From: a virus
IMG/VR virus record: IMGVR_UViG_3300000553_003777
Location: 1 to 33,340 of that record
Direction: 5' to 3' (one strand)
Length of the DNA: 33,340 bases
This document shows positions 1,732 to 31,902 of the stretch, piece after piece. Both the position numbers and the translations under genes were made by a program. Within the stretch, counting starts at the first letter, position 1, and each line of letters begins with the position of its first letter. The notes beneath the pieces were generated by a model. That model did no database searches and was not told the DNA's origin. It saw nothing but the letters and a program-made list of their open reading frames with translations.

Positions 1732-1770
1732 CAGAATTTAGGTTCTTTGACATATTGGAAAATTTAAGTT

Positions 1771-1843: not shown

Positions 1844-1891
1844 CTATAAAATGTTTGAGTTCATTTTAGAAAATTTCCACTTTTTTATTTT

Positions 1892-1899: not shown

Positions 1900-1911
1900 C
1901 AAATAAAAAAT

Positions 1912-2778: not shown

Positions 2779-2837
2779 GATGGTGAGAATACGAACTTGG
2801 TAAGTTTGAGACCCCAGATCGTTACTGGGAGAGACCT
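2765..2837 (+). tRNA. tRNA-Thr(GGU)
   Basis: Acceptor GGTCTCT/AGAGACC is perfect; anticodon stem CGAAC/GTTTG, loop TTGGTAA with GGT at 2799-2801; T stem CCCAG/CTGGG. The T loop is ATCGTTA, with A54 and U58 instead of U54 and A58. The first 14 bases overlap the end of the HNH gene. Confidence 0.85.
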
Positions 2838-2838
2838 C

Positions 2839-2905
2839 AAAGATAAAGAATACATTCAGCAATTAAAAAACTTTCTATGGTGAAACAAATCGTATTCTGT
2901 TCTTT
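2839..2905 (+). ncRNA. Structured RNA motif, copy 1
   Basis: Outer helix AAAGA/TCTTT (2839-2843, 2901-2905), internal loop TAAA/TGT, inner helix GAATAC/GTATTC (2848-2853, 2892-2897), then ATTCAGCAATT and a small apical hairpin TTTC/GAAA enclosing an ATGGT-type loop. Three other copies have the same order of parts with different outer helices. It directly follows tRNA-Thr and probably belongs to the same transcript. Confidence 0.75.
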
Positions 2906-2911
2906 AAAAAA

Positions 2912-2986
2912 TTGAACTAAAAGATTACATACAGCAATTAAAAAAAACAAACTTCCAATTTGTAAAAAAAGATAATCTGAGTTCAA
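2912..2986 (+). ncRNA. Structured RNA motif, copy 2
   Basis: Outer helix TTGAAC/GTTCAA (2912-2917, 2981-2986), internal loop TAAAA/TGA, inner helix GATTA/TAATC (2923-2927, 2973-2977), then CATACAGCAATT and an apical hairpin ACAAA/TTTGT. The third inner pair is T-A where the other copies have A-T, a compensatory change. It ends 5 bases before tRNA-Gly(GCC). Confidence 0.75.
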
Positions 2987-2991
2987 AATTT

Positions 2992-3063
2992 GCAGATGTA
3001 GTATAATGGTTATTACGGGGGCTTGCCAAGTCTCATATGCCTGTTCAATTCAGGTCATCTGCT
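2992..3063 (+). tRNA. tRNA-Gly(GCC)
   Basis: Perfect acceptor GCAGATG/CATCTGC, D arm GTA...TAC with TAATGG loop, anticodon stem GGGGC/GTCTC (two G-U pairs), loop TTGCCAA with GCC at 3025-3027, T loop TTCAATT. Confidence 0.88.
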
Positions 3064-3071
3064 CAATAAAT

Positions 3072-3154
3072 GCGGCTATCGTATAATGGTGACGAGAGTT
3101 TGATTATGTCGGTCTTCCAAACCGAGGATGAGAGTTCGATTCTCTCTAGCCGCC
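3072..3154 (+). tRNA. tRNA-Gly(UCC) with enlarged D arm
   Basis: Perfect acceptor GCGGCTA/TAGCCGC, anticodon stem TCGGT/ACCGA, loop CTTCCAA with TCC at 3116-3118, T loop TTCGATT. Between position 9 and the anticodon stem there are about 28 bases instead of about 16; ATAAT and ATTAT could form a longer D stem. The rest is canonical. Confidence 0.82.
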
Positions 3155-3157
3155 AAT

Positions 3158-3241
3158 GTTCCCGTAGTGTAATTGGTAACACCTCACGCTTACATCGTGA
3201 AAACCTAGTCGGATTTACAGGTTCGAGTCCTGTCGGGGAAT
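3158..3241 (+). tRNA. tRNA-Val(UAC) with long variable region
   Basis: Acceptor GTTCCCG/CGGGGAA (a G1-A72 mismatch and one G-U), D stem GTG/CAC, anticodon stem TCACG/CGTGA, loop CTTACAT with TAC at 3191-3193, T stem ACAGG/CCTGT. The variable region (3201-3216) is 16 bases and can form a short stem AAACC/GGATT with one mismatch, which is atypical for valine tRNAs. Confidence 0.8.
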
Positions 3242-3247
3242 ACAAAA

Positions 3248-3321
3248 GTTCTTATGGTGTAATTGGCAACACATCACTTTGACGGAGTGAAGACTTATAG
3301 GTTCGAGTCCTATTGAGAACA
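3248..3321 (+). tRNA. tRNA-Val(GAC)
   Basis: Acceptor GTTCTTA/TGAGAAC, D stem GTG/CAC, anticodon stem TCACT/AGTGA, loop TTGACGG with GAC at 3281-3283, T stem ATAGG/CCTAT with loop TTCGAGT. Canonical, unlike the preceding valine tRNA. Confidence 0.88.
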
Positions 3322-3326
3322 CAGAT

Positions 3327-3402
3327 GGCTCTTAAGCATTTAATGGATGATGTCTAACCTTGTAAGTTAGGGAAGTCGGATCGTTACCGAAATGAGCCTC
3401 CA
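3327..3402 (+). tRNA. tRNA-Thr(UGU), CCA encoded
   Basis: Acceptor GGCTCTT/ATGAGCC (one mismatch), anticodon stem CTAAC/GTTAG, loop CTTGTAA with TGT at 3361-3363, T loop ATCGTTA (A54/U58). This is the only tRNA here with a clearly encoded CCA (3400-3402). Confidence 0.85.
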
Positions 3403-3430
3403 AATTAGAAAAAAGTTAGATTTTTTTATT

Positions 3431-3438
3431 TATATATA
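3431..3438 (+). promoter_or_regulatory. Late-type TATATATA promoter candidate
   Basis: TATATATA after a T-rich stretch, 22 bases before the ATG of the HNH gene at 3461; same context as other late-type boxes in the window. Confidence 0.4.
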
Positions 3439-3460
3439 ATAATAAAAATAATCAAACTAA

Positions 3461-4162
3461 ATGAAGTTAAAAAAAGATTATGTAAAAATATTATCTTGGG
3501 CAAAAAAAATCAAGGCTATAGAAATATTGGGAGGTAAATGTCAACATTGTGGTGATGAAAATGTATTTCATTTAACATATCATCATATGAATCCAGAAGA
3601 AAAAGAATTTAACATGTCATCTATAAGACAAGGGAGATGGAGTAAAATTGAAAAAGAATTAAATAAATGTATATTATTGTGCTATAATTGCCATAATGAA
3701 ATACATAAATTAAATAATAATGAAAACAGTAGATTTAATGAAAATAAGAGATTATTTTTAGAATTTAAAAATATTGATTCTTGTAAAAAATGTGGTTATA
3801 ATAAATATAATGGTTCATTACATTTTCATCATGAAAAGGAAAAATATTTTACTTTGAATAGAGTTATGGTCACTTATAAAACTGTTGACGAATTAAGTGA
3901 AGGCATTACAAAAGAATTAAATAAATGTATAGTTTTATGTGCAAATTGTCATGAAGAACTTCATCATAATACAGGATTTTTTGAAGAATACAAAGAAGAA
4001 ATTTATGAAAAATCTAGAAATGTTAGAGAAAATACTCCAAAGATAGATAGAGAAATAGTAAAAAAAATGTACTTTGAAGAAGGTAAAAGACAAATAGATA
4101 TAATTAGATTTTTTGGTTGCACTAAAGGTACAATTAGTGATATTATAAAGAAATTAAAATAA
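3461..4162 (+). CDS. HNH endonuclease with two HNH units and a C-terminal HTH
   Basis: The 233-residue protein has two tandem HNH/treble-clef units: CQHCGDE...YHHMNPEE...CYNCHNEIH (about residues 28-85) and CKKCGYN...HFHHEKE...CANCHEELH (about 105-170). The last 40 residues (REIVKKMYFEEGKRQIDIIRF and CTKGTISDIIKKLK) look like a helix-turn-helix. It is a full-length paralogue of the minus-strand gene at 26427-27140, with the same order of parts. Its stop is one base from tRNA-Thr(CGU). Its role is probably homing into RNA-gene loci; DNA recognition would come from the HTH and the duplicated zinc knuckles. Confidence 0.85.
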   Translation: MKLKKDYVKILSWAKKIKAIEILGGKCQHCGDENVFHLTYHHMNPEEKEFNMSSIRQGRWSKIEKELNKCILLCYNCHNEIHKLNNNENSRFNENKRLFLEFKNIDSCKKCGYNKYNGSLHFHHEKEKYFTLNRVMVTYKTVDELSEGITKELNKCIVLCANCHEELHHNTGFFEEYKEEIYEKSRNVRENTPKIDREIVKKMYFEEGKRQIDIIRFFGCTKGTISDIIKKLK

Positions 4163-4163
4163 T

Positions 4164-4235
4164 GCCGTTTTAGTTTAACAGGTAGAATAGTTGATTCGTA
4201 ATCATCAGATGCTGAATCGTACTCAGTAAGCGGCT
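4164..4235 (+). tRNA. tRNA-Thr(CGU), copy 1
   Basis: Acceptor GCCGTTT/AAGCGGC (one G-U), anticodon stem GTTGA/TCATC (one mismatch), loop TTCGTAA with CGT at 4197-4199, T stem GCTGA/TCAGT with loop ATCGTAC (A54/U58 again). It starts one base after the HNH stop codon. Confidence 0.78.
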
Positions 4236-4253
4236 CAATATCGGGTATTTGGG

Positions 4254-4272
4254 GAGCCAGGTCACTTGGCTC
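4254..4272 (+). other. Short hairpin between threonine tRNAs
   Basis: GAGCCA pairs with TGGCTC around a 7-base loop and is followed by AAAATAAAA. There is no T-run, so it is a processing signal or spacer hairpin rather than an obvious terminator. Confidence 0.4.
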
Positions 4273-4290
4273 AAAATAAAATAGTTATGT

Positions 4291-4361
4291 TCTGGAGTAA
4301 TATAATGGTATTATTAATCATTCGTAATGATTAAATGGTGGTTCGATCCCACTCTCCAGAT
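4291..4361 (+). tRNA. tRNA-Thr(CGU), copy 2
   Basis: Perfect acceptor TCTGGAG/CTCCAGA, perfect anticodon stem AATCA/TGATT, loop TTCGTAA with CGT at 4323-4325, T loop TTCGATC (normal U54). It has the same anticodon as the previous tRNA but an unrelated body. Confidence 0.85.
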
Positions 4362-4371
4362 CAATAAATAG

Positions 4372-4418
4372 CAGATGTGTTAAGATGTGTTGTGGTTCGA
4401 ACCCGGCATACAACAGAA
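4372..4418 (+). other. Possible tRNA remnant
   Basis: GTGGTTCGAACCC has the look of a T arm, and TACAACA could be a 3' acceptor strand, but no convincing anticodon arm or 5' acceptor precedes it. It is followed by an open stretch reading TEEEAAKLVATNF then stop, perhaps the tail of a lost gene. Low confidence. Confidence 0.25.
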
Positions 4419-4510
4419 GAAGAAGCAGCAAAACTTGTTGCTACAAATTTTTAAACTTTTATTATATAATATTATATCAAAATAAGATTAAATTTTTTGA
4501 TTTATCATAA

Positions 4511-4585
4511 GGCCACATAGCTCAGCGGATTAGCAGCGACAGCCTTCTAAGCTGTAGGTCGAAGGTTCGAATCCTTCTGTGGTCA
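4511..4585 (+). tRNA. tRNA-Arg(UCU), canonical
   Basis: Acceptor GGCCACA/TGTGGTC, D arm GCTC...GC with AGCGGATTA loop, anticodon stem ACAGC/GCTGT, loop CTTCTAA with TCT at 4546-4548, T stem GAAGG/CCTTC. It is a fully normal cloverleaf, unlike the D-arm-less element at 1348 with the same anticodon. Confidence 0.92.
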
Positions 4586-4613
4586 CACTTTTCCTTTTGG
4601 AAGATCCAAAAAA

Positions 4614-5696: not shown

Positions 5697-6161
5697 TTAA
5701 AGATTATATTTTTTTGAGATGATAAAACTTTCTAATGTTTCTAAGATTTCGTTTTTATCATTTAATAAAAAAAATAAACATAAATTTCTCGGATTTTGAT
5801 TTGTGATATATTCGCTTAAAGCTTCACTCACGAAATTAAAAAAATCGAGAGATGTATCCTTAAAACTATCCTTAAATATATATATAAACATTGAAACATT
5901 ATCATCTTCTATTTGAAGTATTATTTGTAATAATCTTCCTAAAATTTTATCACTGTAATGAATTTTTATTGAACCATCATCATTAAAATATCTTCTAACA
6001 ATGCCGCTTGATCGTTTTTGGTATGATAGAGTATAACCGTCTATATCTTTAATTTCAATAATAATATCTTCAAGTTTTCTGCTAAAATCTCGTAAAATAT
6101 GATTAACTGCAATTGGATCAGTGTGTTTTATTGCATATTCAAATAATTTTAAATATTTCAT
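5697..6161 (-). CDS. CTS-like/KYNL cassette protein
   Basis: 154 residues, beginning MKYLKLFEYAIKHTDP and ending FIISKKYNL. Its first 27 bases are identical to those of the upstream neighbour at 6158-6496, while the bodies are unrelated, so the start region behaves as a shared module. The middle is rich in aliphatic residues and acidic turns (IILQIEDDNVSMFIYIF). Its ATG overlaps the TGA of the previous gene (ATGA). A T4-type capsid targeting role for the N-terminus is inferred; the body is unrecognised. Confidence 0.75.
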   Translation of the reverse strand: MKYLKLFEYAIKHTDPIAVNHILRDFSRKLEDIIIEIKDIDGYTLSYQKRSSGIVRRYFNDDGSIKIHYSDKILGRLLQIILQIEDDNVSMFIYIFKDSFKDTSLDFFNFVSEALSEYITNQNPRNLCLFFLLNDKNEILETLESFIISKKYNL

Positions 6162-6496
6162 AAGTTATATTTATTTGCTAATTTTTCAAGTTCAATTTCT
6201 TTAACCTTTTCTTCGTATTCCTTTCTGCTAAATGGTCCTGATATGAAATCTGTATGAACATCAAATTCTCTTTCTATAGCTCGATGTTCTATTTCATCAT
6301 CTGTTATTCTATAATCAACTTTAAAATGTGGAATATAACCCCGATAAACAATCCCTTGCTCTGGTTCGCTCTGAACAATAATTTTACCATAAATATTATA
6401 AATCCAATCATATTGAGGTTGATTATATGCTAGTATGACCAAATCACCATTTCGATATTCGTGATATTTATATTCAAATAATTTTAAATATTTCAT
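6158..6496 (-). CDS. CTS-like/KYNL cassette protein
   Basis: 112 residues, beginning MKYLKLFEYKYHEYRNGDLV and ending ELEKLANKYNL. After the shared start, the segment YRNGDLVILAY...YGKIIVQSEPEQG resembles a small SH3-like barrel; this is only an impression. A TATATATA box lies immediately upstream (6502-6509 on this strand). It is first in the minus-strand run of three genes. Confidence 0.75.
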   Translation of the reverse strand: MKYLKLFEYKYHEYRNGDLVILAYNQPQYDWIYNIYGKIIVQSEPEQGIVYRGYIPHFKVDYRITDDEIEHRAIEREFDVHTDFISGPFSRKEYEEKVKEIELEKLANKYNL

Positions 6497-8094: not shown

Positions 8095-8424
8095 TTAGAT
8101 GTCATGTTTTTCTGGATCATATGGTTCTGCTGAATAAGCTAGCCAACTTTCTCGTTCTTGATTATAGATTTCCTCTGCTATTTCCTCGTCAACATTATCT
8201 TCTTCCATAATTTCATCTATTGTTCTTAACCCGTGTAATCCTACATAGGATTCATAATCTTCACAAGCTTTTTCCCAAGCGTAAGTATTTGCTTCATCTT
8301 CATCCTTAGCATCAATAATTTCAAAATTATTTGCTCCACCAAAACCACCACCTAATCCATAAGAAATGAACCATTTACCTTGTTCTATTGATTCATTAAT
8401 TTTAAAATCTTTTACATGTTTCAT
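8095..8424 (-). CDS. Small acidic protein with CTS-like N-terminus
   Basis: 109 residues, starting MKHVKDFKINESIEQGKWF. The segment WFISYGLGGGFGGANNFEII, then an alanine-, aspartate- and glutamate-rich helix (KDEDEANTYAWEKACEDYES), resembles a family of small phage proteins I have seen without known function. The start closely matches the gene at 7501. Its acidic, glycine-loop composition would fit a soluble head-internal or regulatory protein. Confidence 0.72.
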   Translation of the reverse strand: MKHVKDFKINESIEQGKWFISYGLGGGFGGANNFEIIDAKDEDEANTYAWEKACEDYESYVGLHGLRTIDEIMEEDNVDEEIAEEIYNQERESWLAYSAEPYDPEKHDI

Positions 8425-8737: not shown

Positions 8738-9532
8738 TTAGATAATAGGTTGTCCTAAAAAGTAATGATTTCTTTTTGAAATTTTTATATCACTTTCATA
8801 AGATTCCTTATCAAATAATAATATAGTTTGCGAACCCCATACAAAATAACCTAATTTATCTGCTATTTCTATTGTGTCACCTTTTTTAACGAGAAAATTG
8901 AAATCTTGAATTGCAGATTCACCAACTAATAGCATATAAACTGGTTTCTTTTCGGTTTCAAATTCTAAGAACCAGAGAGTATTTTTACCAAATAAACCTA
9001 ATTTTTTATCGACTGGAATTGCTCTTTTTAATTTACCAGAAATTGGCGAATGAATATTATGATAATAACTCACCAGAAGTTTCATATTAACGAACCAATA
9101 GTTTTCATCAACTCCTAAATTTTTAAGATCCTGAGCAACCTGAGTAGTGGATTTTTTCAATCTAATGATGCTTGAGGTATCTTTAACTTGTCCTATAGAT
9201 TCAATATTACATTCGTTAGGAATTATAATTTGAGATTTTTTTGCTTGTTTTTTAATTTCTTTGAATTTATCTGGTACTATACTTCTATTAAAAAAGTCCA
9301 TAAAGTTCTCATAGTCATTGATAAACCATTCTTGATGGACTTCTGATGTCTTCATCCTCCAAAATTTGTTATTTTTTGCGTCTTTCGACTTGAAACACTC
9401 TATTAAATTTTGTATATTTTCAGTACCTATTTCCTTGTATTTCACATATTTAAGTTTTGAAAGTATGTATCTCTCGTTTGCCCTAATAGATACTAATTTA
9501 AATAACTCTTCGAGGATTTTTTCATCATTCAT
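8738..9532 (-). CDS. psd: Phosphatidylserine decarboxylase-like protein
   Basis: 264 residues with the order of motifs of phosphatidylserine decarboxylase, the pyruvoyl enzyme that makes phosphatidylethanolamine: DFFNRS (79-84), YYHNIHSP (156-163, family YHxxHSP) and YFVWGSQTILLF (229-240), which contains the Gly233-Ser234 bond where the proenzyme cleaves itself. The conserved PADG motif that supplies the Asp of the self-cleavage triad reads PNEC (105-108), so Asp is replaced by Glu or lost; activity may be altered. No N-terminal membrane helix is obvious, and it is shorter than E. coli Psd (322). It starts 4 bases after the stop of the DUF3326 gene, so the two are co-transcribed. Confidence 0.85.
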   Translation of the reverse strand: MNDEKILEELFKLVSIRANERYILSKLKYVKYKEIGTENIQNLIECFKSKDAKNNKFWRMKTSEVHQEWFINDYENFMDFFNRSIVPDKFKEIKKQAKKSQIIIPNECNIESIGQVKDTSSIIRLKKSTTQVAQDLKNLGVDENYWFVNMKLLVSYYHNIHSPISGKLKRAIPVDKKLGLFGKNTLWFLEFETEKKPVYMLLVGESAIQDFNFLVKKGDTIEIADKLGYFVWGSQTILLFDKESYESDIKISKRNHYFLGQPII

Positions 9533-9536: not shown

Positions 9537-10814
9537 TTAATTTATTATTTTTGTCGGACCAATTGGTCTGTTTAAGGAATAAGGACTTATTCCTGATTTT
9601 AAAGCCACAAGGATTCCTGCTGCTTCTAAATAATTTTTTGCTTTAAAGAATTGATTTTTATTCCAAGGCAATAATGAAAGATCATTTTTCATTAAATTTG
9701 TTTCATCTTCAATTGCTATAACTGGAATATTTTGTTCTAATGCAGAAATTAATGGTAAACCTATACATCTATCTGGTGTTACTAATGCACTTATATTTCT
9801 ATTTGTAATAACACCAGGTTGGCTTACGGGCTCAACAATTCTTGGTGATTGATACATACCTTTGATTGTGCAAAATAGTTCTGTTGTAGATAATATTTCG
9901 GGAGTTTTTCTAGGATCAATAATTTCAAATGGATATTCTAAAAACATTTTTTCTAAAACTGGTGCGTGAGCACAAGGTACATCATAAAGATTTGATATTG
10001 TATGTGTGAGTAGCGCTTCCGCAGATCCCCAAGGATTAGCAAGGTTTTTATCATTACTATAATAATTATCTAATAATTCTTGTGTATCACCATCTAACAA
10101 TGTATATAAAATAAATGAATCATAATTATCTTTATGTTGTTCAATGATATTTGTTAATTTTTCAAGTTTGTTTATCTTACCTGTTGCCATACCGAGTTCA
10201 TTATAAAATATTTCATAATAAGGTGTATCACTCAATTCAATAACATCTATTTCACAACCAAGTGTCACTCTTGCAGCTGATGCCATATTAATAGGACGAA
10301 AGTTATGATAATGATTACTGGTGTTGGTATCAAAAATTAAAAGAATTTTGTTCATTTTAGTTGGTGCAAGTCCAATAGTACCCATCATAAATCTATTTAA
10401 TATACTGCCTTCGACATAAAGGGTATTTGTTGTCATTTCATTTATATCTGCAGCATTTACAACATTTGGATGTGTAATCAAGGTGTCAGCAACATTACCA
10501 AGAAGTCTTGCTGATGGATTACCATCACCAGAATTACCACCTACATCTGCTCTAATACCTGTTGGAATAATTTGAACCACATTAAATGTAGTTTCATCTT
10601 TAATTTTTATTGGATTGAACTCGAATATATTCTTATATTGATGATTACCAATATTTTCTATTTCAGCATATTCACATTCTATATTATTATTTTTATAATC
10701 TATAATAGCAAATCTTGAAATATTTCTATTTTTAAAAAATTCTTTTAATCTATTAAAATTTCCTTTTGAATTAAAAGAAAATGTTACTTTTTCATTTTTC
10801 TGTGAAACTTCCAT
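9537..10814 (-). CDS. DUF3326 family protein
   Basis: 425 residues. The core (about residues 78-420) matches the DUF3326 family as I remember it: VVQIIPTGIRADVGGNSGDG, then ARLLGNVADTLITHPNVVN (followed by AAD), then NTLYVEGSILNRFMMG and, near the end, GVITNRNISALVTPD. The glycine-rich GGNSGD loop and THPNVVN look like a ligand site, but the biochemical role of the family is unknown to me. The first 75 residues are an extra domain. Its start overlaps the end of the split GIY-YIG gene by 23 bases, and its stop is 4 bases from the Psd-like gene, suggesting a joint function, possibly in lipid or membrane metabolism (inference). Confidence 0.75.
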   Translation of the reverse strand: MEVSQKNEKVTFSFNSKGNFNRLKEFFKNRNISRFAIIDYKNNNIECEYAEIENIGNHQYKNIFEFNPIKIKDETTFNVVQIIPTGIRADVGGNSGDGNPSARLLGNVADTLITHPNVVNAADINEMTTNTLYVEGSILNRFMMGTIGLAPTKMNKILLIFDTNTSNHYHNFRPINMASAARVTLGCEIDVIELSDTPYYEIFYNELGMATGKINKLEKLTNIIEQHKDNYDSFILYTLLDGDTQELLDNYYSNDKNLANPWGSAEALLTHTISNLYDVPCAHAPVLEKMFLEYPFEIIDPRKTPEILSTTELFCTIKGMYQSPRIVEPVSQPGVITNRNISALVTPDRCIGLPLISALEQNIPVIAIEDETNLMKNDLSLLPWNKNQFFKAKNYLEAAGILVALKSGISPYSLNRPIGPTKIIN

Positions 10815-12216: not shown

Positions 12217-12651
12217 ATGAACTCAAATTCAAATTTAGTAAACGCAACAAGACAAGAAGATACCTTAACCGCAAACAGTATGGTAACAAATTCAACATCA
12301 TTGAATTCATGTGTTGATATGTTCTTTTTAGCAGGTGCTTCAAGGAATATGACAGAAAAAGATATCGAGATTCTTTTTCAGAAAGCAATTGTGGAAAATC
12401 CATTAGTTGCGCTTAAACTTATGTTTTGGGCAAGAGATGTCAGAGGTGGTGCTGGTGAAAGAAGGTTTTTCAGAATTTGTTCTAAATTCTTGAGAAAAAA
12501 CTATCCTGATTTACTGATTAAAAATTTGAGAAGTATTGCTGAATATGGAAGATATGATGATGTAACTTTCTTGTTAAGTGAAGGTGAAAATGATAAAATT
12601 GATAAAGAGATTCTCTTTTATATAAAAGAAACTTTAGAAGGTGATAAATGA
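12217..12651 (+). CDS. DUF2828/Ro60-like protein, N-terminal helical part
   Basis: 144 residues that match the N-terminal helical-repeat part of DUF2828 proteins: CVDMFFLAGASRNMTEKDIE, then NPLVALKLMFWARDVRGGAG followed by ERRFFRICSKFL and AEYGRYDDVTFLLS. The WARDxRGGxGER motif is the family hallmark. DUF2828 and TROVE (Ro60) proteins share this plan of a helical-repeat ring closed by a vWA domain that binds RNA ends. The start has a near-perfect Shine-Dalgarno (AAGGAGG, 8 bases upstream). The frame stops at TGA (12649) just where the vWA-containing frame takes over; together they give about 479 residues, close to a full-length family member. Confidence 0.8.
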   Translation: MNSNSNLVNATRQEDTLTANSMVTNSTSLNSCVDMFFLAGASRNMTEKDIEILFQKAIVENPLVALKLMFWARDVRGGAGERRFFRICSKFLRKNYPDLLIKNLRSIAEYGRYDDVTFLLSEGENDKIDKEILFYIKETLEGDK

Positions 12652-13657
12652 AAATAAAATAATTAAGACACATATGAAAAATTTATTAGCAAAATGGTTA
12701 AGTAGAAAAGGATATGAATTTGAAAAGGTTCGTAAATATTTAGGATTAAGTCCTAAGGAATACCGTAAACTTGTCGTAGGTTTATCGAATACTGTTGAAC
12801 AAAAAATGTGTGCAAAAGATTGGGATGCTATCACTTTCTCACATGTTCCATCAGTTGCTATGAATAAGTATAGAAAAGCATTCTTGAGAAATGATGAAAG
12901 TCGTTTCAACGAATATATTTCTTTGGTTCTTGAAGGCAAAGAAGAAATTAAGGCTGGTGTCTTGTTTCCACATTTATTATATCAAGCATATAATAGAGGT
13001 GAAGATAAGAAAGCAGTAGAAGCACAATGGATGAACTTAATTGATTTTATGGCAGATTCGAATGAAAAAATCATTCCAGTTTGTGATGTATCAGGAAGTA
13101 TGACTGGTCTTCCAATGGATGTATCAGTTTCATTAGGTGTTTATATTTCCGAAAGAAATAAAAGTATTTTTAAGGATGCTTTTATCACCTTCTCTGACAG
13201 ACCAAAAATGCAATATTTAAAAGGTTCGTTGTACGAAAGATTAAGACAACTTGAATCAGCCGAATGGGGTGGAAGCACCAATTTGGAAGGTGTTTACAAG
13301 TTGATCTTAACAAAGGCATTAGAAAATAAGGTAGCAGAAAGTGATATGCCAACTAAGATTTTAATTATCTCTGATATGGAATTTAATAGTTGTGTGTCAA
13401 ATGGTGGTGACTCTGCATTGAGAATGATTCAAAGAATGTATTCTGAATCAGGTTACAAGATGCCTGAACTTATTTTCTGGAATGTAAATGGTCGTCTTGG
13501 TAATGTGCCTGCAAACTTTAAATCAAAGGGTGTAGGATTGGTATCAGGATTCAGTCCTTCAATATTAAAATCAATTTTACAAGGTAAGATTGATACTCCT
13601 GAAGGTTTAATGTTAAGGACTATAATGAGTGAAAGGTATCAACCAATCACAATATAA
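12641..13657 (+). CDS. DUF2828/Ro60-like protein, C-terminal part with vWA domain
   Basis: This frame (first Met in good context at 12674) continues the helical part (LLAKWLSRKGYEFEKVRKYL, SPKEYRKL, CAKDWDAITFSHVPSVAMNK, KYRKAFLRND) and then a von Willebrand A domain with an intact metal site: DVSGSM (Asp149 of this frame, base 13085), the GGSTNLEG threonine and ISDMEF. Ro60 and bacterial Rsr use this arrangement to bind Y RNAs and misfolded RNAs. Joining it to the upstream frame needs one T skipped at AAA-T-GAA (12646-12652), so +1 frameshifting, a split into two polypeptides or a sequence error are all possible. No Shine-Dalgarno precedes 12674. A strong terminator follows. Confidence 0.82.
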   Translation: MINENKIIKTHMKNLLAKWLSRKGYEFEKVRKYLGLSPKEYRKLVVGLSNTVEQKMCAKDWDAITFSHVPSVAMNKYRKAFLRNDESRFNEYISLVLEGKEEIKAGVLFPHLLYQAYNRGEDKKAVEAQWMNLIDFMADSNEKIIPVCDVSGSMTGLPMDVSVSLGVYISERNKSIFKDAFITFSDRPKMQYLKGSLYERLRQLESAEWGGSTNLEGVYKLILTKALENKVAESDMPTKILIISDMEFNSCVSNGGDSALRMIQRMYSESGYKMPELIFWNVNGRLGNVPANFKSKGVGLVSGFSPSILKSILQGKIDTPEGLMLRTIMSERYQPITI

Positions 13658-20814: not shown

Positions 20815-22137
20815 ATGAAACTTAAAGTAAATTGTGAAATATGTGGAAAAGAAGAATTGGTATTTCTAAGTAGATCAAAAAAATATAAAACCTGTTCAGT
20901 AAAATGTTTGAGTGAATATAATAAGGCTGAAAATGATTTAACTTGTTGTGTGTGTAATAAAAAATTTCATGTGAAGCCTTTTAGAGTAAATAAAATAAAA
21001 AATGAATTTGGAATAACTTGTTCTAAGAAATGTTCAAATAAATTAAAAACAAAAATGTATATGGGAAGAAAAAATCCGAACACAAAATATTTAAAATTAG
21101 ATGATAATTTTTTCAAAAATGTTGATAGCGAAGGTAAAGCATATTTATTGGGTTGGATAGCAAGTGATGGTACTGTAGGCTTATCTAGTATTACAATAAA
21201 AATAAATAATAAAGATGTAAAATGTTTAGAGTCTTTGAGTGATATTATTTGTCAAGAATTACCAATTGTACCTAATAAAGATATGGTATCTTTAACTATT
21301 TCATCTAAAACTATTTCGAAAAATGTATGTGAATTATTAAATATATTACCAGAAAAAAAATCAGATAAGGTTTGTTTTCCTTCTCTTGAAAAAGATGAAT
21401 TAAAATGGGCTTTTTTGAGAGGGTTTTTTGATGGTGATGGATCTGTACATGGTATATCTGAATCTCACAATTCACCATATTGTAATATCACAACAAATTC
21501 TGAATCTATGAGAAAAACTATAATGGAATTTACAAAAATTCCATGTTCAGAAAATAAAAATCAATTAGGATGGAGTGGAAATAATGCACTAGATTTTCTA
21601 GATAAAATCTATAAAAATGCCAAATATAGACTTTTAAGAAAATATGAATTATACTTGGACATTTCAACTTGGGTGCCATCTGTATCTTATAGTAAATATT
21701 TCAAAAATGAACATTGCAAATGGTCAAAAACAAGAACGGATGCAATTTCACCTTCAAAAGAAAGGGCTTCTGATTCTGGATATGATTTAGTTTTATTAGA
21801 GAAGATAAAAACCGTAGGTAAAGTTGAATTTTATGACACAGGAATAAAAGTTAAACCAAATTTTGGTTATTATTTTCAGGTAGTACCTAGAAGTTCAATA
21901 AGCAAAACTGGTTATATGTTGGCTAATTCTGTTGGTATAATAGATAGAACTTATTTAGGAAATATTATAGTAGCATTAATTAAAATTGATGATTCTATGC
22001 CTGATTTGGTTTTACCTATGAGATTAGTTCAAATGATTCCAACACCAATTGTTCATTTTGAATTAGAAGAAGTTGATAGTTTTGATGTTAATGAGACACA
22101 TAGAGGTGAAGGCGGTTTCGGTTCATCAAATAAATAA
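20815..22137 (+). CDS. dut: LAGLIDADG homing endonuclease fused to dUTPase
   Basis: 440 residues in three parts. Residues 7-75 hold two zinc-finger units (CEIC...CSVKC and CCVC...CSKKC). Residues 105-285 form a LAGLIDADG endonuclease with both signature helices, YLLGWIASDGTV (110-121) and FLRGFFDGDGSV (200-211). Residues about 302-440 are a complete trimeric dUTPase: SDSGYDL (319-325), PRSSI (358-362), NSVGIIDRTYLG (371-382), RLVQMI (403-408) and RGEGGFGSS (430-438). dUTPase hydrolyses dUTP to dUMP, keeping uracil out of DNA. No in-frame ATG stands at the junction, so dUTPase is made only as the fusion unless it is processed. Intein splice residues are absent. Confidence 0.9.
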   Translation: MKLKVNCEICGKEELVFLSRSKKYKTCSVKCLSEYNKAENDLTCCVCNKKFHVKPFRVNKIKNEFGITCSKKCSNKLKTKMYMGRKNPNTKYLKLDDNFFKNVDSEGKAYLLGWIASDGTVGLSSITIKINNKDVKCLESLSDIICQELPIVPNKDMVSLTISSKTISKNVCELLNILPEKKSDKVCFPSLEKDELKWAFLRGFFDGDGSVHGISESHNSPYCNITTNSESMRKTIMEFTKIPCSENKNQLGWSGNNALDFLDKIYKNAKYRLLRKYELYLDISTWVPSVSYSKYFKNEHCKWSKTRTDAISPSKERASDSGYDLVLLEKIKTVGKVEFYDTGIKVKPNFGYYFQVVPRSSISKTGYMLANSVGIIDRTYLGNIIVALIKIDDSMPDLVLPMRLVQMIPTPIVHFELEEVDSFDVNETHRGEGGFGSSNK

Positions 22138-23738: not shown

Positions 23739-24218
23739 TTATAAATTATATTTTTTTGCGGCTGCAAAATGTTCAAATTCTGGTATAGTTTCTAACACTC
23801 TTTTGAAATTTTTTATAAATTTTGGGTACCAACCACCATCTCCTCCGTCTCTTGGAACTTTAAGATTATCAAATTCATTTTGTATATATTCATAAAAATA
23901 TGTACAAATATCTGTATATTTATTATAAAATTCAATAGGTGTTAAAAAAGATTTTGCAAATATTGAAAATTCTTCTTTTGTTAAAATTTCGTGATTACCA
24001 AAGGCTTCACAATTGGATTTTTCAATATTCATATCTAAACAATCAAATTCTACAAAAAGTCCAGTATATTTGGGTACGCCAAAAATTTTATTATTTTTAG
24101 TAATTTGTATGTCAATACACATACTTATGGAATAAGTATTGCCACTTTTTTGTATAAGAAAATTGTCAATGTATCTATTAAGATCAGCATTTTCAAAAAT
24201 TTTAAAATTTGTTATCAT
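23739..24218 (-). CDS. CTS-like/KYNL cassette protein
   Basis: 159 residues, beginning MITNFKIFENADLNRYIDNF and ending AAAKKYNL. The first ten residues fit the shared N-terminal motif (xFxIFEN) and the last five the shared C-terminal one. The body contains a strand pair (FGVPKYTGLFVEFDCLD) and a glycine-rich GGDGGWYP loop. It is transcribed alone on the minus strand. The function is unknown; packaging in the head is inferred. Confidence 0.72.
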   Translation of the reverse strand: MITNFKIFENADLNRYIDNFLIQKSGNTYSISMCIDIQITKNNKIFGVPKYTGLFVEFDCLDMNIEKSNCEAFGNHEILTKEEFSIFAKSFLTPIEFYNKYTDICTYFYEYIQNEFDNLKVPRDGGDGGWYPKFIKNFKRVLETIPEFEHFAAAKKYNL

Positions 24219-24298: not shown

Positions 24299-25087
24299 AT
24301 GATAAATAAGATTTTTGTTGACAAGACAACAGGTGAGCAAGTGAGAATTATAAATGAAGATGCAATTAACTATCAATTAGATAACAGTGTTAGAATTAAG
24401 AAAGAAGTTTTTCCTAAAAGATATGAAGAACAAATAGAAGTTGATCCAAATGCTTTTTTTCAACAAGTATATAAATCTAATGATCCACTAGCAAATCTAG
24501 CAAATCAAATAAAACAGTTAGATTCAAGTAAAATAGTAGATAATCCAAATTCTGGTGCACAAGTAAAATATACACCACCCGTCGTGCTTTCTGATAATTC
24601 TATGACTCAAGTTGCAGTAAAGCAACAACAAATCGAAGGTGCAGTACAATTAACACCTGAACAAAAAAAAGCAATGCTAGATGAATGGCGTAAAAGTCAA
24701 CCAGGTGCTCAAATTCCAGAGGTACAAAATAGAAATTATGATGAGGAGGAAGAAAGATTTTTAAATGGTGACAAACCAATAGCAACTAAAACATCTGAAC
24801 CAAAGGTTGATCCAATTCAAATGATGTTTAAAATGTTTAAAAAAAATTATTCTGTTAAATTAGATATAGAAATTGAAGATAATATACCAAATCCCCAGTT
24901 CATAGCAATAATTCAAGAAAATGTTGAAGCTGATGCTATTAGATATTATGCGGATTTAATTTCTGATAAATTATTACAAGATCCTGAAAAACTTAAAGAT
25001 GAAGTTTATAAACAACTTAAAGTAATAGTAAATAAAGAATTAGGTATCGAGGAAGAAAAAAATAATAAAGAAGATGAATCTAAGTGA
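24299..25087 (+). CDS. Unknown protein, possible virion component
   Basis: 262 residues. Residues 1-60 form a strand-rich start (INKIFVDKTTGEQVRI, YEEQIEVDPNAFF); residues about 60-165 are low-complexity and Gln/Pro/Asp-rich; residues about 175-255 (MMFKMFKKNYSVKLDIEIED and ADLISDKLLQDPEKLKDEVY) form a compact alpha-beta end. This layout of a flexible middle between small folded ends is common in phage baseplate and scaffold proteins, but no family is recognised. It overlaps the next gene by 14 bases. Confidence 0.68.
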   Translation: MINKIFVDKTTGEQVRIINEDAINYQLDNSVRIKKEVFPKRYEEQIEVDPNAFFQQVYKSNDPLANLANQIKQLDSSKIVDNPNSGAQVKYTPPVVLSDNSMTQVAVKQQQIEGAVQLTPEQKKAMLDEWRKSQPGAQIPEVQNRNYDEEEERFLNGDKPIATKTSEPKVDPIQMMFKMFKKNYSVKLDIEIEDNIPNPQFIAIIQENVEADAIRYYADLISDKLLQDPEKLKDEVYKQLKVIVNKELGIEEEKNNKEDESK

Positions 25088-25487
25088 ACACAATGAAAGA
25101 TTTGAATTTTGTAGAAAATTCAGAGAATATGAATCAAAAATAATCAAAATGGCTGGACATCTTGCTGATTATTATATAGATAGAGCATTAGAATCAGAGG
25201 ATTTTTCTCATGTTTCTGGATTTTTAATTGATTATTTTTCTGGACCAGTTGGAAAACCACTTGATGCATATGAATTGCTACAACAGTATAAAGAATTTGG
25301 TCTTAATGAAAAAATTGAAGATATAGATTTTAATATTGATGAATGGTATAAAATTAAACGTGAGATTGATAAGCCATATATGTCTGATCCTGAAAGAGAT
25401 AAGTGTATAAAAATGAATGATGATGAATATTTAAAATATATGATTGAAAAAAGAAGAAAAGAAGCGAATGAGGATACCGAAATTTAG
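25074..25487 (+). CDS. Unknown acidic helical protein
   Basis: 137 residues beginning MNLSEHNERFEFCRKFREYE. Helical, with a central FLIDYFSGPVGKPLDAYELL and a charged C-terminus (KYMIEKRRKEANEDTEI). It is co-transcribed with 24299 and 25530. No family recognised. Confidence 0.66.
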   Translation: MNLSEHNERFEFCRKFREYESKIIKMAGHLADYYIDRALESEDFSHVSGFLIDYFSGPVGKPLDAYELLQQYKEFGLNEKIEDIDFNIDEWYKIKREIDKPYMSDPERDKCIKMNDDEYLKYMIEKRRKEANEDTEI

Positions 25488-25529
25488 GATGGATAAATTG
25501 ATAGAAACTTGAATAAAAATAACTTAAAA

Positions 25530-25901
25530 ATGATAGCAGAACAATATATTAGAGATGGTGTAAGATTAAGAAAATCTTATATTGAAAATTTAAAGCAAAT
25601 TTTGAAACAAGAGCCTGCTATAAATGATAAAAAGCAAGTTTTTGAAGATTTAAAGAATGAAATGGAAAAAATAGTTCATTCTGATTTAAATGATGTCAGA
25701 AAAACATTAGAACTTAATAATAAATTAAATGTACTTGATAAAGAAATTAGAAAAGTACAAGAAATTTTAAAACCTTATTATGATGCTATTGAAAATTTGA
25801 AATTTGAAAGGGATAGATTATATATAGCAATTAAAGAAAAATATCCAAATATAACTGACAGAGAAATAGAATCAGAAATAATGGCACATATAGAAGAATG
25901 A
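25530..25901 (+). CDS. Unknown coiled-coil protein
   Basis: I use the ATG at 25530 (MIAEQYIRDGVRLRKSYIEN, 123 residues) rather than an in-frame TTG 21 bases upstream. Nearly all helical with heptads (LKNEMEKIVHSDLNDVRKTL, LNVLDKEIRKVQEILK), ending EIESEIMAHIEE. The stop overlaps the next ATG. No family recognised; a structural or chaperone-like role would suit a coiled coil of this length. Confidence 0.62.
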   Translation: MIAEQYIRDGVRLRKSYIENLKQILKQEPAINDKKQVFEDLKNEMEKIVHSDLNDVRKTLELNNKLNVLDKEIRKVQEILKPYYDAIENLKFERDRLYIAIKEKYPNITDREIESEIMAHIEE

Positions 25902-25978: not shown

Positions 25979-26019
25979 CAAAAAATTATAACTATATAGT
26001 TTATCGTTCTTTAAAATAA

Positions 26020-26385
26020 GGGGGTGACCGATTTTGACAGTATTGTATAATGAGGTTATCGGCAAGTAACGCATTTTCTAATAAGGCGTTTTATAAATTT
26101 ATAGGAACAAACAATAAATGGCGAAGCACATACGCATATCGTTACTTCAAATTCAACATTTTCAGTTGCTGGAACTGTTGTTGAGAGTGGAGTTCTCGTA
26201 GCCTAAACAGAAAAAACCAGACCATCTTTTTAGTAAACTATATTGAGACTTTCAAAAATGTTTAGTGGATTTGACAATTACCAATTAAAAATTATCTATT
26301 TCGTTCTGATTAGAAAAATAGAACTAAACTTGTAGAAGATGCCGAAAGGCGTTATTGGACCGGGGTTTGAGTCCCCGCACCTCCA
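26020..26385 (+). ncRNA. ssrA: tmRNA (transfer-messenger RNA)
   Basis: The 5' end GGGGGTGACCGATTTTGACAG and the 3' end (T arm CGGGG-TTTGAGT-CCCCG, then CACCTCC and discriminator A) form the alanine-type acceptor GGGGGTG/CACCTCC with the G3-U70 pair needed by alanyl-tRNA synthetase. The internal reading frame resumes at GGC (26120) and runs to TAA (26204-26206), giving a 28-residue tag that starts GEAHTHIV and ends ESGVLVA. Bacteroidota tags also start Gly-Glu and end in small hydrophobic residues but have about ten residues. tmRNA rescues stalled ribosomes and tags the product for proteolysis; this phage copy may alter host quality control. CCA is not encoded. Confidence 0.93.
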
Positions 26386-26416
26386 CATTAACTTATTGAT
26401 TATCAATAAGTTAAAT

Positions 26417-26447
26417 AAAAAGCCAACTATTTAGTTGGCTTTTTTAA
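26417..26447. terminator. Terminator shared by the tmRNA and the convergent HNH gene
   Basis: AGCCAACT/AGTTGGCT (26421-26428, 26433-26440) with A-run before and T-run after. A second long inverted repeat, TTAACTTATTGAT and its complement, lies just upstream (26388-26414). The hairpin also encodes the last residues of the HNH protein on the minus strand. Confidence 0.88.
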
Positions 26448-27140
26448 TTTCAATTCTTTTATAATATTTGAAATTGTGCCCTTTGTCGCACCAAAATATT
26501 TTGCAATTTCTATTTGCTTTGTTCCGCTTGTATATAACTCATTAACCTTATTTCTGTCTATTTTTTTCATAACTTCTTTTTTTGTTTTTGATTTTTTAAT
26601 AATTTCAATTTTGAATTTTTCAAAAAAATCAATATCGGAGTGTTCTTTTTTGTGACAATTTTTACAGATGACTACACATTTATTTAATTCTTCGGCAATT
26701 TTAATAGATAGATCTTCTATACTATTAAAAGTGATATAAATTTCACCTATCATAAAATCTTTTTCGTTTTTATCTAAATGATGAAAATCTAAAGATGAAT
26801 TACATTCATTATACCCACATTTTTCACATCCAGAGATACCCTTATATTCTAAATATATTTTTTTATTGTTTTTCAATTTACTGTCATTTTCATTGGAATG
26901 TATTTTACCATGGCAATTTCCACATAACAAAATACATTTTTGAATTTCTTTTTCAATGATTGACCATCTACAATCTTGTATCGCCCAAATTGTAGCATCT
27001 TTTTCTGAACTATTTTTATGATGAAATTCTAAGGAAAAAATATTTGTTTCACCACACTTTTCACATTTCCCACCTAAATATTCAATTGCTTTAATTCTTT
27101 TAGATAATCTATCTATTTTTACCCATTCTCTTTTTGTCAT
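26427..27140 (-). CDS. HNH endonuclease with two HNH units and HTH, paralogue of 3461
   Basis: 237 residues with the same plan as the protein at 3461: CEKCGETN...FHHKNSSE...CGNCHGKIH (about 28-85), CEKCGYNE...DFHHLDKN...CKNCHKKEH (about 108-170), and a C-terminal HTH (KVNELYTSGTKQIEIAKYF then TKGTISNIIKELK). The two share long stretches at roughly half identity. This copy lies next to the tmRNA 3' end, the other abuts a tRNA-Thr, so the family favours RNA-gene neighbourhoods. A TATATATA box (27161-27168) lies 20 bases upstream. Confidence 0.86.
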   Translation of the reverse strand: MTKREWVKIDRLSKRIKAIEYLGGKCEKCGETNIFSLEFHHKNSSEKDATIWAIQDCRWSIIEKEIQKCILLCGNCHGKIHSNENDSKLKNNKKIYLEYKGISGCEKCGYNECNSSLDFHHLDKNEKDFMIGEIYITFNSIEDLSIKIAEELNKCVVICKNCHKKEHSDIDFFEKFKIEIIKKSKTKKEVMKKIDRNKVNELYTSGTKQIEIAKYFGATKGTISNIIKELKLKKPTK

Positions 27141-27707: not shown

Positions 27708-27961
27708 TAAAAATTTATGAGGATTTTAAAAAAACATATTCTTTAATTGGCTATCCAAATGATGATGAGATAATAACTATATCACAAAAAGAATTTGATT
27801 TGATAAATATGGTTACGAATTTTCTGATTTTATGGAAAGTACTCAAACAAAGTTGGACTTATCAAGATAAAGAAAAAAATGAATTAAAAGATTGGTTGGA
27901 AGCATACAGAGAAACCGGTGACACAGAATTGGCGACAGATATAAAAAAATATAACTTATGA
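27704..27961 (+). CDS. CTS-like/KYNL cassette protein
   Basis: 85 residues beginning MIKIYEDFKKTYSLIG and ending DIKKYNL. Body helical with acidic patches (LKDWLEAYRETGDTELAT). Its ATG overlaps the previous TGA and its TGA overlaps the next ATG; both overlaps lie in the repeated AAATATAACTTATGA sequence that also encodes KYNL. Function unknown; head packaging inferred. Confidence 0.75.
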   Translation: MIKIYEDFKKTYSLIGYPNDDEIITISQKEFDLINMVTNFLILWKVLKQSWTYQDKEKNELKDWLEAYRETGDTELATDIKKYNL

Positions 27962-28581
27962 AAAAATATAAGGAATTTAATGAAAAATTCGATCAGGAAA
28001 TAATTGATGGATTAATTGATAAAGGTTTGGAAAATTTATCAAAAAAAGAAAGAGATTATTTAAATGATCCACATAATGTCAATTTGGATAAGCAAAAAAT
28101 TGAAAAATCTACTGTGAAAGAAGTTCCTGTGAAAGATGAGAAAACAAAGAATTTAATTAATAAATGGAAACAAAAAGGTGAAGATGATAAAAAAGAGTGG
28201 AGTAAAAATGCTAATAAAAATCTAAATAAAACTATTGATGTAAGTGAAAGGGGACCTGTGGTTCTTATAAATTGGATAGAATTGTATTATTTTATAGAAA
28301 AAAATTATCCAGATTTCGATAAATCCCAAATACATAACATTATTAAAAACATATTAGATGCTAAAATAGTCCACTACTCTGATGATGATGAAGATACTGA
28401 TTTTATATTTATTGATAAAGAATATACAAAAAACGAAATGGTTTGGTTTAATGTTGGTCGAGATCCCAGTATAAAAACAGCATGTGTGAGATTTAATGAA
28501 TATGAAAAATTTTGGATACCTAGATTATTAAATGCCCATAATTTTCATACAATAAGAATAGAAGATTATAAAAACAGATAA
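27958..28581 (+). CDS. CTS-like cassette protein
   Basis: 207 residues beginning MKKYKEFNEKFDQEIIDGLI. The first half is very charged (Lys/Glu/Asp), like T4 internal head proteins; the second half folds more regularly (RGPVVLINWIELYYFIEKN, FWIPRLLNAHNFHTIRI). It ends at a strong terminator. The motif at the start and the charged first third suggest that an N-terminal piece could be removed by a prohead protease; this is inference. Confidence 0.74.
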   Translation: MKKYKEFNEKFDQEIIDGLIDKGLENLSKKERDYLNDPHNVNLDKQKIEKSTVKEVPVKDEKTKNLINKWKQKGEDDKKEWSKNANKNLNKTIDVSERGPVVLINWIELYYFIEKNYPDFDKSQIHNIIKNILDAKIVHYSDDDEDTDFIFIDKEYTKNEMVWFNVGRDPSIKTACVRFNEYEKFWIPRLLNAHNFHTIRIEDYKNR

Positions 28582-29247: not shown

Positions 29248-30012
29248 ATGAAAAAATTTAGTACTTTACACGAAGAAGTAAAACCAAAATATGAATTGAA
29301 AGATTCATTAAGGAACGAAATTTATTCTTTAATAGAAAGTTCATTATCAATCAAAATTTCAAATGAAGAATCTTTAGACAAAGATATTAATATCAATGGT
29401 AAAGAAGAATTAGTCGAAAAAATTAAAGGTTTATTAGATGATGTTAGAATTAAAGAAAGAACCTTTACTTTAGAAACGGTTAAGAAAAATGTATATAGAA
29501 ATTTTGATATGAATTGGTTGAATGAACAGATTGATAATTTAACTAAAATTAAAATCGGAAGCAATTTCATTTTGAGAGAATCTATTAAAGAAAATTCTAT
29601 TACTGATCAATATAGAGCAGAAATTCTTAATTATTTTGCTAAAAAATTGAATGAAAATAAGAAAATTGGTGATTTTGAATTTATTCACGATCCATCAGAA
29701 GGAATTTTCGAATTTGCAAATGATCAAGAAGGTATTATTGTAAAGGCAACACCATTTTTCAATGACGCAAGTGGAATTCCGATTGAAGTTTTCGACGAAG
29801 ATGTTGCAGATTCACATATATTCTTGGAACAAAGAGAATTTAATATTGAAGATATTCTTTTTGAGAAATATAAAGAAATCATGGAAAAGTTTTTGATTGA
29901 GGATTTTGATAATTGGATGACTAAAGTTGATAAATTTGATGAAGAAAAAGGTACAGAACCAGATTTAAGAAAATTGGATTTTGAAAAAGGCGAAAATAAA
30001 CAGCCTTTCTAA
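29248..30012 (+). CDS. CTS-like protein, charged
   Basis: 254 residues beginning MKKFSTLHEEVKPKYELKDS. Alternating acidic and basic helices, an LxE-type context (RESIKENSITD) around residue 112, and a strand-rich segment (IGDFEFIHDPSEGIFEFAND, EGIIVKATPFF). No family recognised. T4-type prohead protease cuts after LxE/IxE, so several sites are conceivable. It ends at a terminator. Confidence 0.7.
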   Translation: MKKFSTLHEEVKPKYELKDSLRNEIYSLIESSLSIKISNEESLDKDININGKEELVEKIKGLLDDVRIKERTFTLETVKKNVYRNFDMNWLNEQIDNLTKIKIGSNFILRESIKENSITDQYRAEILNYFAKKLNENKKIGDFEFIHDPSEGIFEFANDQEGIIVKATPFFNDASGIPIEVFDEDVADSHIFLEQREFNIEDILFEKYKEIMEKFLIEDFDNWMTKVDKFDEEKGTEPDLRKLDFEKGENKQPF

Positions 30013-31452: not shown

Positions 31453-31902
31453 ATGCAACAATTTGAAAGAGATTTTCAAAAAGAAAGAGATGCAAGTGTT
31501 GATAAAAATATACAACCAATATCAGGTAGATATTATTGGAAAATAAAGGCTGATAATTTAGATATCATAAAAGCATCTCTTGATAAACTTGGTGCACCAA
31601 AAGATATCTTTTTAGATATTCAAATATGTAAAAGACGAGGATTAATTGCTGTCCGTCGACCTCTATTACTGCTTCGAGGTAAAAGTCATTTTATAGAAAT
31701 TTGGCATAATGAAAATTTCAAATCAGAAGATAAAAATACATGGATGAGTGATGAATGGTCTTGGATGGAATGGCAACATGACAAAAGACTTAAAGGTTTT
31801 GATGATCTTAGATATAGAAGAGGATATAAATATATGGGCGTAGTAAAATTAACACAAGAGGAAATAGAACTATACACTTCAATGAATAAATATAATTTGT
31901 AA
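31453..31902 (+). CDS. KYNL cassette protein, start codon uncertain
   Basis: 149 residues from ATG 31453 (MQQFERDFQKERDASVDKN), ending YTSMNKYNL. In frame upstream, codons 31426-31452 read I-KYKLFELT, the same as the KYxKLFE motif starting other cassette genes, with ATA (31426) where ATG would be expected. So the true start may be this ATA or a lost ATG. The body is basic and Trp-rich (SDEWSWMEWQHDKR). Confidence 0.7.
   Translation: MQQFERDFQKERDASVDKNIQPISGRYYWKIKADNLDIIKASLDKLGAPKDIFLDIQICKRRGLIAVRRPLLLLRGKSHFIEIWHNENFKSEDKNTWMSDEWSWMEWQHDKRLKGFDDLRYRRGYKYMGVVKLTQEEIELYTSMNKYNL

What the first reader, a model, noticed from the sequence alone, without database searches (positions are those of the whole stretch)
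26020..26385. Phage tmRNA with an unusually long tag
The alanine-type acceptor with G3-U70 and the tag frame are clear. The tag has 28 residues (GEAHTHIV...ESGVLVA) against about ten in Bacteroidota hosts, though it keeps the Gly-Glu start and a small hydrophobic end. A changed tag could direct rescued peptides to a different protease or avoid degradation.
Basis: partly seen in the sequence, partly recalled or inferred. Interest (0 to 1): 0.72.

Follow-up and report, generated by a model that had tools for sequence, protein, structure and literature searches.

The report
Phage tmRNA with conserved long tag
A phage carries its own version of a bacterial RNA that frees stuck ribosomes and labels the unfinished protein, and its label is about three times longer than usual and has been kept at that length across related phages, which suggests that the extra length does something.

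Summary
Window 26020-26386 (+) is a tmRNA gene (ARAGORN; Rfam RF00023, 81.9 bits, E 1.7e-30). The resume codon GGC lies four bases after the A86 equivalent and opens a 28-codon tag, GEAHTHIVTSNSTFSVAGTVVESGVLVA.

The length is no accident of one sequence. A search pattern that ignores the tag found ten other IMG/VR contigs with this tmRNA, all ten with 28- or 33-residue tags. The 735-kb phage LR756501 has a relative with 33 residues and also encodes SmpB. Between the two lengths the aligned gaps are 18 and 3 bases, both in frame. Pairs outside the tag covary; inside it the constraint is mainly on amino acids, and moderate. Control bacterial tags have 9-10 residues in 32 of 33 Bacteroidota-phylum loci.

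Most likely it rescues ribosomes and adds a degradation tag; the end LVA is destabilising in E. coli. Escape from degradation is unsupported but untested. Phage tmRNAs are known, and so are long tags (recalled); the conserved long-tag phage family is the new part.

The parts
26006..26015 (+). leader motif GTTCTTTAAA just upstream of the tmRNA 5' end
   Evidence: GTTCTTT present 5' of 6 of 8 distinct family members; TTCTTT in 10 of 33 Bacteroidota-phylum control loci against 1 of 29 Bacillota-phylum
26020..26386 (+). tmRNA (ssrA) gene, standard one-piece form
   Evidence: ARAGORN; Rfam RF00023; covariation
26020..26026 (+). acceptor stem 5' strand GGGGGTG, including G3 of G3-U70
   Evidence: 7 of 7 pairs
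26062..26107 (+). PK1 region upstream of the tag (conserved GCAAGTA..CG core)
   Evidence: alignments; consensus stem
26115..26119 (+). resume-codon context UAAAU (U85/A86 equivalents and -1 triplet)
26120..26206 (+). tag reading frame, 28 codons plus TAA: GEAHTHIVTSNSTFSVAGTVVESGVLVA
   Evidence: conserved in relatives
26207..26325 (+). downstream helix/pseudoknot region
   Evidence: consensus helices with compensatory changes
26326..26384 (+). H2 3' strand, T-arm (CGGGG-TTTGAGT-CCCCG) and acceptor 3' strand CACCTCC with U70; 3' CCA not fully encoded
26417..26444 (.). palindromic terminator-like hairpin after the tmRNA; its arms begin in A5 and end in T5, so it could serve both strands
   Evidence: reported on the - strand; sequence
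26427..27140 (-). HNH endonuclease gene convergent with the tmRNA (neighbour, not part of it)
   Evidence: Pfam, PHROGs
24299..25901 (+). three unknown ORFs upstream (24299-25087, 25074-25487, 25509-25901); same neighbourhood in L069 (tmRNA present) and L066 (tmRNA absent)

Best explanation
This is a working phage-encoded tmRNA. Charged with alanine and carried by SmpB (the host's, as far as this fragment shows; the 735-kb relative encodes its own), it enters ribosomes stalled on broken messages during infection, releases them, and adds alanine plus a 28-residue tag. The last residues (VLVA) act as a degron read by a host AAA+ protease of the ClpXP kind. The roughly 18 extra residues before it are kept by selection and most likely help delivery: an unstructured engagement segment or an adaptor/protease contact tuned to the infected cell. 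Shown: gene, structure, resume context, tag length and its conservation. Inferred: expression, charging, partner SmpB, degradation, and the role of the extension.
For: Gene calls (2, 3). Acceptor 7 of 7 pairs with G3-U70 kept in all 8 distinct members, with compensatory pair changes at positions 4, 5 and 6. 23 of 74 consensus pairs with double-sided change. Same resume context in all members (rule from passages of PMC2481249). Tag length 28 in six and 33 in two distinct members, with in-frame gaps of 18 and 3 between the groups. No stop in frame 0, while frames 1 and 2 carry stops in the four pairs read. Amino-acid change more conservative than same-number random change: L003/L023 P 0.0015; win/L026 P 0.021 (BLOSUM measure). 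Third codon positions most variable, 14 of 28 against 10 and 6. SmpB in LR756501. C-terminal LVA destabilises GFP in E. coli (passages of PMC9097571). GTTCTTT leader shared with some Bacteroidota tmRNA genes.
Against: Selection signal is moderate: the column-shuffle test gives P 0.046 for third positions and 0.41 for synonymous-only codons, and several pairwise tests are not significant. No ClpP, Lon or FtsH peptidase in 12 records, so the protease is assumed. No SmpB in the window or in the ten IMG/VR records, though these are probably fragments. L066, a relative with the same neighbours, has no tmRNA there, so the gene is not fixed in the clade. No expression data.
Confidence: 0.6

Rival explanations
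1. The long tag gives rescued peptides another fate: it is stable, or steers them to a phage structure or a different protease instead of routine host degradation.
For: 7 of the 13 invariant residues of the 28-residue tags lie in the first ten, outside any C-terminal degron; the tag is rich in V, T, A, G, S, 20 of 28 against 24% in the phage's ORFs; the 735-kb relative encodes a ClpB-like AAA+ protein with no protease partner found.
Against: All members keep a hydrophobic-plus-Ala C-terminus, and LVA is destabilising in E. coli. The AAA+ protein is below NCBIfam cut-offs for ClpA and ClpB alike, so its partner cannot be read from it. The 33-residue group has a different composition.
Confidence: 0.2
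2. The extension is kept for the RNA, not the peptide: the tag region folds on itself and replaces a structural element of the tmRNA.
For: The tags of both 33-codon members fold better than synonymous recodings (P 0.000 and 0.025), with 2 of 29 pairs double-changed between them; GGC of the resume codon can pair with GCC of the last sense codon in all six 28-codon members.
Against: No pair within the 28-codon tag shows compensatory change (0 of 20) while helices outside do; 5 of 6 of these tags fold no better than synonymous recodings (P 0.09-0.39; the sixth 0.043). Amino acids are conserved beyond chance in some pairs.
Confidence: 0.13
3. Neutral drift: an ancestral stop codon was lost and the tag ran on, with no function in the extra residues.
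For: Selection tests are only moderate; phage growth on E. coli needs ribosome release but not destruction of the tagged peptide (passages of PMC2481249).
Against: Length is exactly 28 in six distinct sequences with no gap inside, while the surrounding RNA has gaps; the two gaps to the 33-codon group are in frame.
Confidence: 0.05
4. Decoy: the phage RNA titrates SmpB or alanyl-tRNA synthetase to disable host trans-translation, as proposed for the mycobacteriophage DS6A fragment.
For: DS6A precedent (passages of PMC4131195).
Against: DS6A is little more than the tRNA-like domain, whereas here PK1, resume context, tag and stop are all kept.
Confidence: 0.02

Closest known systems
Standard one-piece bacterial tmRNA (Rfam RF00023)
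   Same: Acceptor with G3-U70, T-stem, H2, PK1, UAxxx-GGC resume context, tag and stop, downstream helices.
   Different: Tag of 28 codons; commonest length is 10 in a 97,179-sequence database (PMC11915505, passages and section 12 part 1). Lower score (81.9 bits) than the over-cut-off bacterial hits listed (105-198 bits).
tmRNA and SmpB of huge phages (Al-Shayeb et al. 2020, PMC7162821)
   Same: That paper reports tmRNAs and SmpB in huge phages and a 735-kb genome (passages); the 735-kb record LR756501 holds the closest relative found in the INPHARED phage collection.
   Different: Tag length is not mentioned in the passages seen. Two Lak phages, also with SmpB, have ordinary 10-residue tags; LR756504 has 24.
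Mesoplasma florum long ssrA tag read by Lon
   Same: A tag of about 27 residues (recalled), in use with its own Lon as an orthogonal degron (papers listed; passages of PMC9097571).
   Different: C-terminal residues differ (recalled YAFA against VLVA), no sequence match tested, and no Lon in 12 family records.
Melnitz two-piece phage tmRNA (PMC9004378)
   Same: Complete phage-encoded tmRNA; passages say 402 of 18,146 phage genomes had one.
   Different: Permuted two-piece form of alphaproteobacterial type; here one-piece.

Membership tests
standard tmRNA (RF00023) | full-length match above the curated score | tested here: met
   81.9 bits against 47, model positions 1-374
standard tmRNA (RF00023) | alanine identity pair G3-U70 in a 7-bp acceptor | tested here: met
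   7 of 7 pairs, G-U at position 3
standard tmRNA (RF00023) | resume codon four bases after a conserved A (A86), open tag frame ending in a stop | tested here: met
   UAAAU-GGC, 28 codons, TAA
standard tmRNA (RF00023) | structure conserved by compensatory change | tested here: met
   23 of 74 pairs with a double-sided change over 7 sequences
standard tmRNA (RF00023) | aminoacylation, SmpB binding and tagging | not testable with these tools
   needs biochemistry
Bacteroidota-type proteolysis tag | 9-10 residues ending YALAA, YAMAA, YRLAA or similar | tested here: not met
   28 residues ending VLVA; controls 9-10 in 32 of 33
huge-phage trans-translation kit (tmRNA plus phage SmpB) | SmpB encoded by the same phage | tested here: inconclusive
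   1 of 12 records has it (LR756501); the window and the ten IMG/VR records, probably fragments, do not
Mesoplasma-type Lon-dependent tag | dedicated Lon protease reading the long tag | tested here: inconclusive
   no Lon_C in 12 records; a host Lon is possible

The most novel reading that the evidence does not exclude
A lineage of large phages, reaching to the 735-kb genome that was the largest phage described in 2020, has evolved its own class of extended trans-translation tag (28-33 residues) that reroutes or specially marks products of rescued ribosomes during infection, partly with its own SmpB and AAA+ ATPase, separating phage quality control from the host's.
Probability: 0.25. Interest if true: 0.75.

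Novelty: new variant of a known kind. Interest (0 to 1): 0.52.

Why it matters
It turns 'why do phages carry tmRNA?' into a question with a handle: if phages only topped up host rescue, the host's 10-residue tag would do. A long tag kept across divergent phages says that the tag itself matters to the phage. It may also supply new, orthogonal degrons, as the Mesoplasma tag did.

Tried and rejected
Short tag through another resume codon: rejected from the context rule and its conservation.

Tag hairpin as the reason for the length: weak in the 28-codon group.

Tag homology to known phage proteins: tblastn of the 28-residue tag against 50,697 phage records gave no match; the 33-residue tag matched only LR756501 and LR756503, both 735,411 bases and probably one genome deposited twice.

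A cellular source: the tag-independent pattern had 0 matches in genome contigs. A looser one gave 13 stretches, none called a tmRNA by ARAGORN; Rfam, run on 4 of the 13 (L055, L057, L058, L065), found none either. A distant search of 72,556 plasmid records gave one partial match, 20% of the query.

Pattern hits that were not tmRNAs and were dropped before counts: 6 of 12 (L018, L019, L021, L022, L024, L025), 1 of 7 (L030), 10 of 20; ARAGORN called none of them, and Rfam was run on L030 and nine of the ten. ARAGORN also misses L006, L008, L026-L029 and L003; these are counted as tmRNAs on Rfam (for L003 only 21.1 bits, below the cut-off, plus 84.8% identity to L023).

Link to the phage's own tRNAs: 12 of 28 tag codons are read by tRNAs of the window against 19.6% in ORFs, P 0.004. 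This is post hoc, from one fragment, and I do not rely on it.

Phage-encoded ClpA/ClpC delivering to host ClpP: the 744-residue AAA+ protein of LR756501 scores best as ClpB but below every curated cut-off shown; I see no IGF/IGL loop (judged by eye from recall), so it was not claimed.

Relatives of the upstream ORF in LR756502 and LR745206 (28-29% identity): about 40 kb around each had no Rfam hit; the rest of those genomes was not searched.

Literature: searches. In the passages read I saw no report of this phage tag family, but the 79 bacteriophage sequences of the 2025 database were not inspected and may include members.

Full report
What is there. The window is an IMG/VR virus record of 33,340 bases, 27% G+C, probably a fragment of a larger tailed phage. 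At 26020-26386 (+) lies a one-piece tmRNA gene, found by ARAGORN and by Rfam RF00023 over the whole model (81.9 bits, gathering score 47, E 1.7e-30). The acceptor has all seven pairs with G3-U70, and the T-stem all five. The 3' CCA is not fully encoded. The tag frame opens with GGC at 26120 and ends with TAA at 26204-26206: 28 residues.

Is the tag start right? In E. [quoted passage not shown] Here U-A-AAU-GGC fits, and the same context stands in all eight distinct family members and, as UAAAU-GAC, in two Lak phages and LR756504.

Relatives. Five pattern scans of viral contigs found ten other contigs with this tmRNA: L006, L007, L008, L009, L020, L023, L026, L027, L028, L029. One search used the tag itself and the resume context, so these are biased; one search used only sequence upstream of the tag and found all ten, every one with a long tag (tags). 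Some are duplicates (same tag in window and L009, L006 and L008, L026 and L028, L027 and L029). With LR756501 of the phage collection there are eight distinct tmRNAs: six with 28 residues (consensus G-E/N/K-AH-T/A-HI-V/L-TS...V...VV...V-x-VA) and two with 33 (L003 from LR756501, and L023), listed. In a MAFFT alignment the two groups differ inside the tag by gaps of 18 and 3 bases, both in frame, with I-x-T-S and V-E residues in register.

Is the RNA under selection? Over seven sequences the consensus has 74 pairs, of which 23 show at least one double-sided change that keeps the pair, in the acceptor, T-stem, H2 and downstream helices. The tag region is different: in the six 28-codon sequences none of 20 predicted pairs has such a change, and 5 of 6 tags fold no better than synonymous recodings (P 0.09-0.39; the sixth 0.043). 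The two 33-codon tags do fold better (P 0.000 and 0.025), so some RNA role there is possible.

Is the peptide under selection? Moderately. Variable columns fall 10, 6 and 14 on codon positions 1-3 (shuffle P 0.046), 13 of 28 residues are invariant, but the number of synonymous-only codons is not unusual (P 0.41). Placing the same number and type of base changes at random, observed amino-acid change is milder for L003/L023 (P 0.0045 by count, 0.0015 by BLOSUM) and win/L026 (0.038, 0.021); the other eight pairs tested range from 0.018 to 0.21 by BLOSUM. Pairs share ancestry, so these are not independent.

How unusual is the length? In loci from the phylum of a Flavobacterium genome plus three others (33 tags; 30 are the best-scoring of 60 genomes with hits), 32 tags have 9 or 10 residues and one has 14. 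In 29 of 30 Bacillota-phylum loci called by ARAGORN, 27 have 8-11 and two have 19. A 97,179-sequence database gives 10 as the commonest length (PMC11915505, passages). Long tags as such are known from mycoplasmas (recalled). Among other huge phages seen here, two Lak phages have 10 residues and LR756504 has 24.

Host. Untested directly. The tmRNA 5' flank carries GTTCTTT in 6 of 8 distinct family members. TTCTTT stands within 40 bases upstream in 10 of 33 Bacteroidota-phylum controls and 1 of 29 Bacillota-phylum controls (Fisher P 0.007). It resembles a leader element, perhaps boxA-like (recalled). Many Bacteroidota control tags also start G-E, G-D or G-N. A Bacteroidota host is therefore plausible, not shown.

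Partners. SmpB was found in 1 of 12 family records, LR756501 (E 1.4e-53; NCBIfam smpB above cut-off). The same genome has a 744-residue ClpB-like AAA+ protein. No ClpP, Lon or FtsH peptidase was found in any of the 12. Al-Shayeb et al. already reported tmRNAs and SmpB in huge phages (passages), and 402 of 18,146 phage genomes were reported to hold a tmRNA (PMC9004378, passages).

Mechanism. The best-supported reading is ordinary trans-translation with a special tag. Infection yields broken messages; the phage RNA frees the ribosomes and marks the products. The end VLVA resembles the destabilising LVA (PMC9097571, passages), and every member ends in a hydrophobic residue and Ala, so the degron is probably kept for a host ClpXP-like protease. 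The additional residues ahead of it are conserved, and my guess is a delivery or adaptor role.

Gene neighbourhood. The three unknown ORFs upstream recur in L069 (tmRNA present) and L066 (tmRNA absent at that place and, over the cut-off, in that 98.8-kb record). The tmRNA is thus probably an accessory gene, next to mobile genes: HNH here, a TnpB-like ORF in L069 (named from its sequence by eye, no family search).

Verdict. The thing is a new variant of a known kind: a phage tmRNA family with a conserved, extended tag. The function of the extension is open and directly testable.

Noticed in passing
L006, L020, L026, L027 and LR756504 (L036) tmRNA T-arms: T-loops depart from TTCGANT (GTCGTA, ATCGTAC, TCTCGGAT, TATTGTAT, TGTCGTAA) although the T-stems stay paired. 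Altered loops might block group I introns or integrases that use this site; not tested.
   Followed up: partly
L003:5346-5577: A group I intron (RF00028, 96.1 bits) interrupts the tmRNA T-loop of the 735-kb phage LR756501; relative L023 has no intron. T-loop introns in bacterial tmRNAs are known (PMC11915505).
   Followed up: partly
window ORFs 5697-6161 -, 6158-6496 -, 8095-8424 -, 27958-28581 +, 29248-30012 +: Several proteins share an N-terminus like MKxxKxFxE, resembling T4 capsid-targeting sequences (recalled); some of these and others end in KYNL (ORFs 3-365 +, 5697-6161 -, 6158-6496 -, 23739-24218 -, 31453-31902 +).
   Followed up: no
window 12217-12651 and 12641-13657 (+): A DUF2828/DUF7788 (Ro60-like) protein is split over two overlapping ORFs in different frames; the C-terminal part is 50% identical to LR756501.
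   Followed up: partly
window 8738-9532 and 9537-10814 (-): A phosphatidylserine decarboxylase-family protein lies beside a DUF3326 protein; the DUF3326 protein had no match in the phage collection.
   Followed up: no
window 20815-22137 (+): A LAGLIDADG endonuclease domain is fused in frame ahead of a dUTPase domain.
   Followed up: no
window 1181-4586 (+): Eleven ARAGORN tRNAs, four of them Thr and two Val, with an HNH gene in the array related to the one beside the tmRNA. Rfam adds a tRNA at 3072-3154 that ARAGORN does not call.
   Followed up: no
L036:2039-2114 (LR756504): ARAGORN reports a tRNA with a four-base anticodon (tcta), as in frameshift-suppressor tRNAs.
   Followed up: no
window 2848-2899 (+): A Dictyostelium class I RNA match (41.7 bits, cut-off 41.5) in the tRNA array; probably chance.
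   Followed up: no
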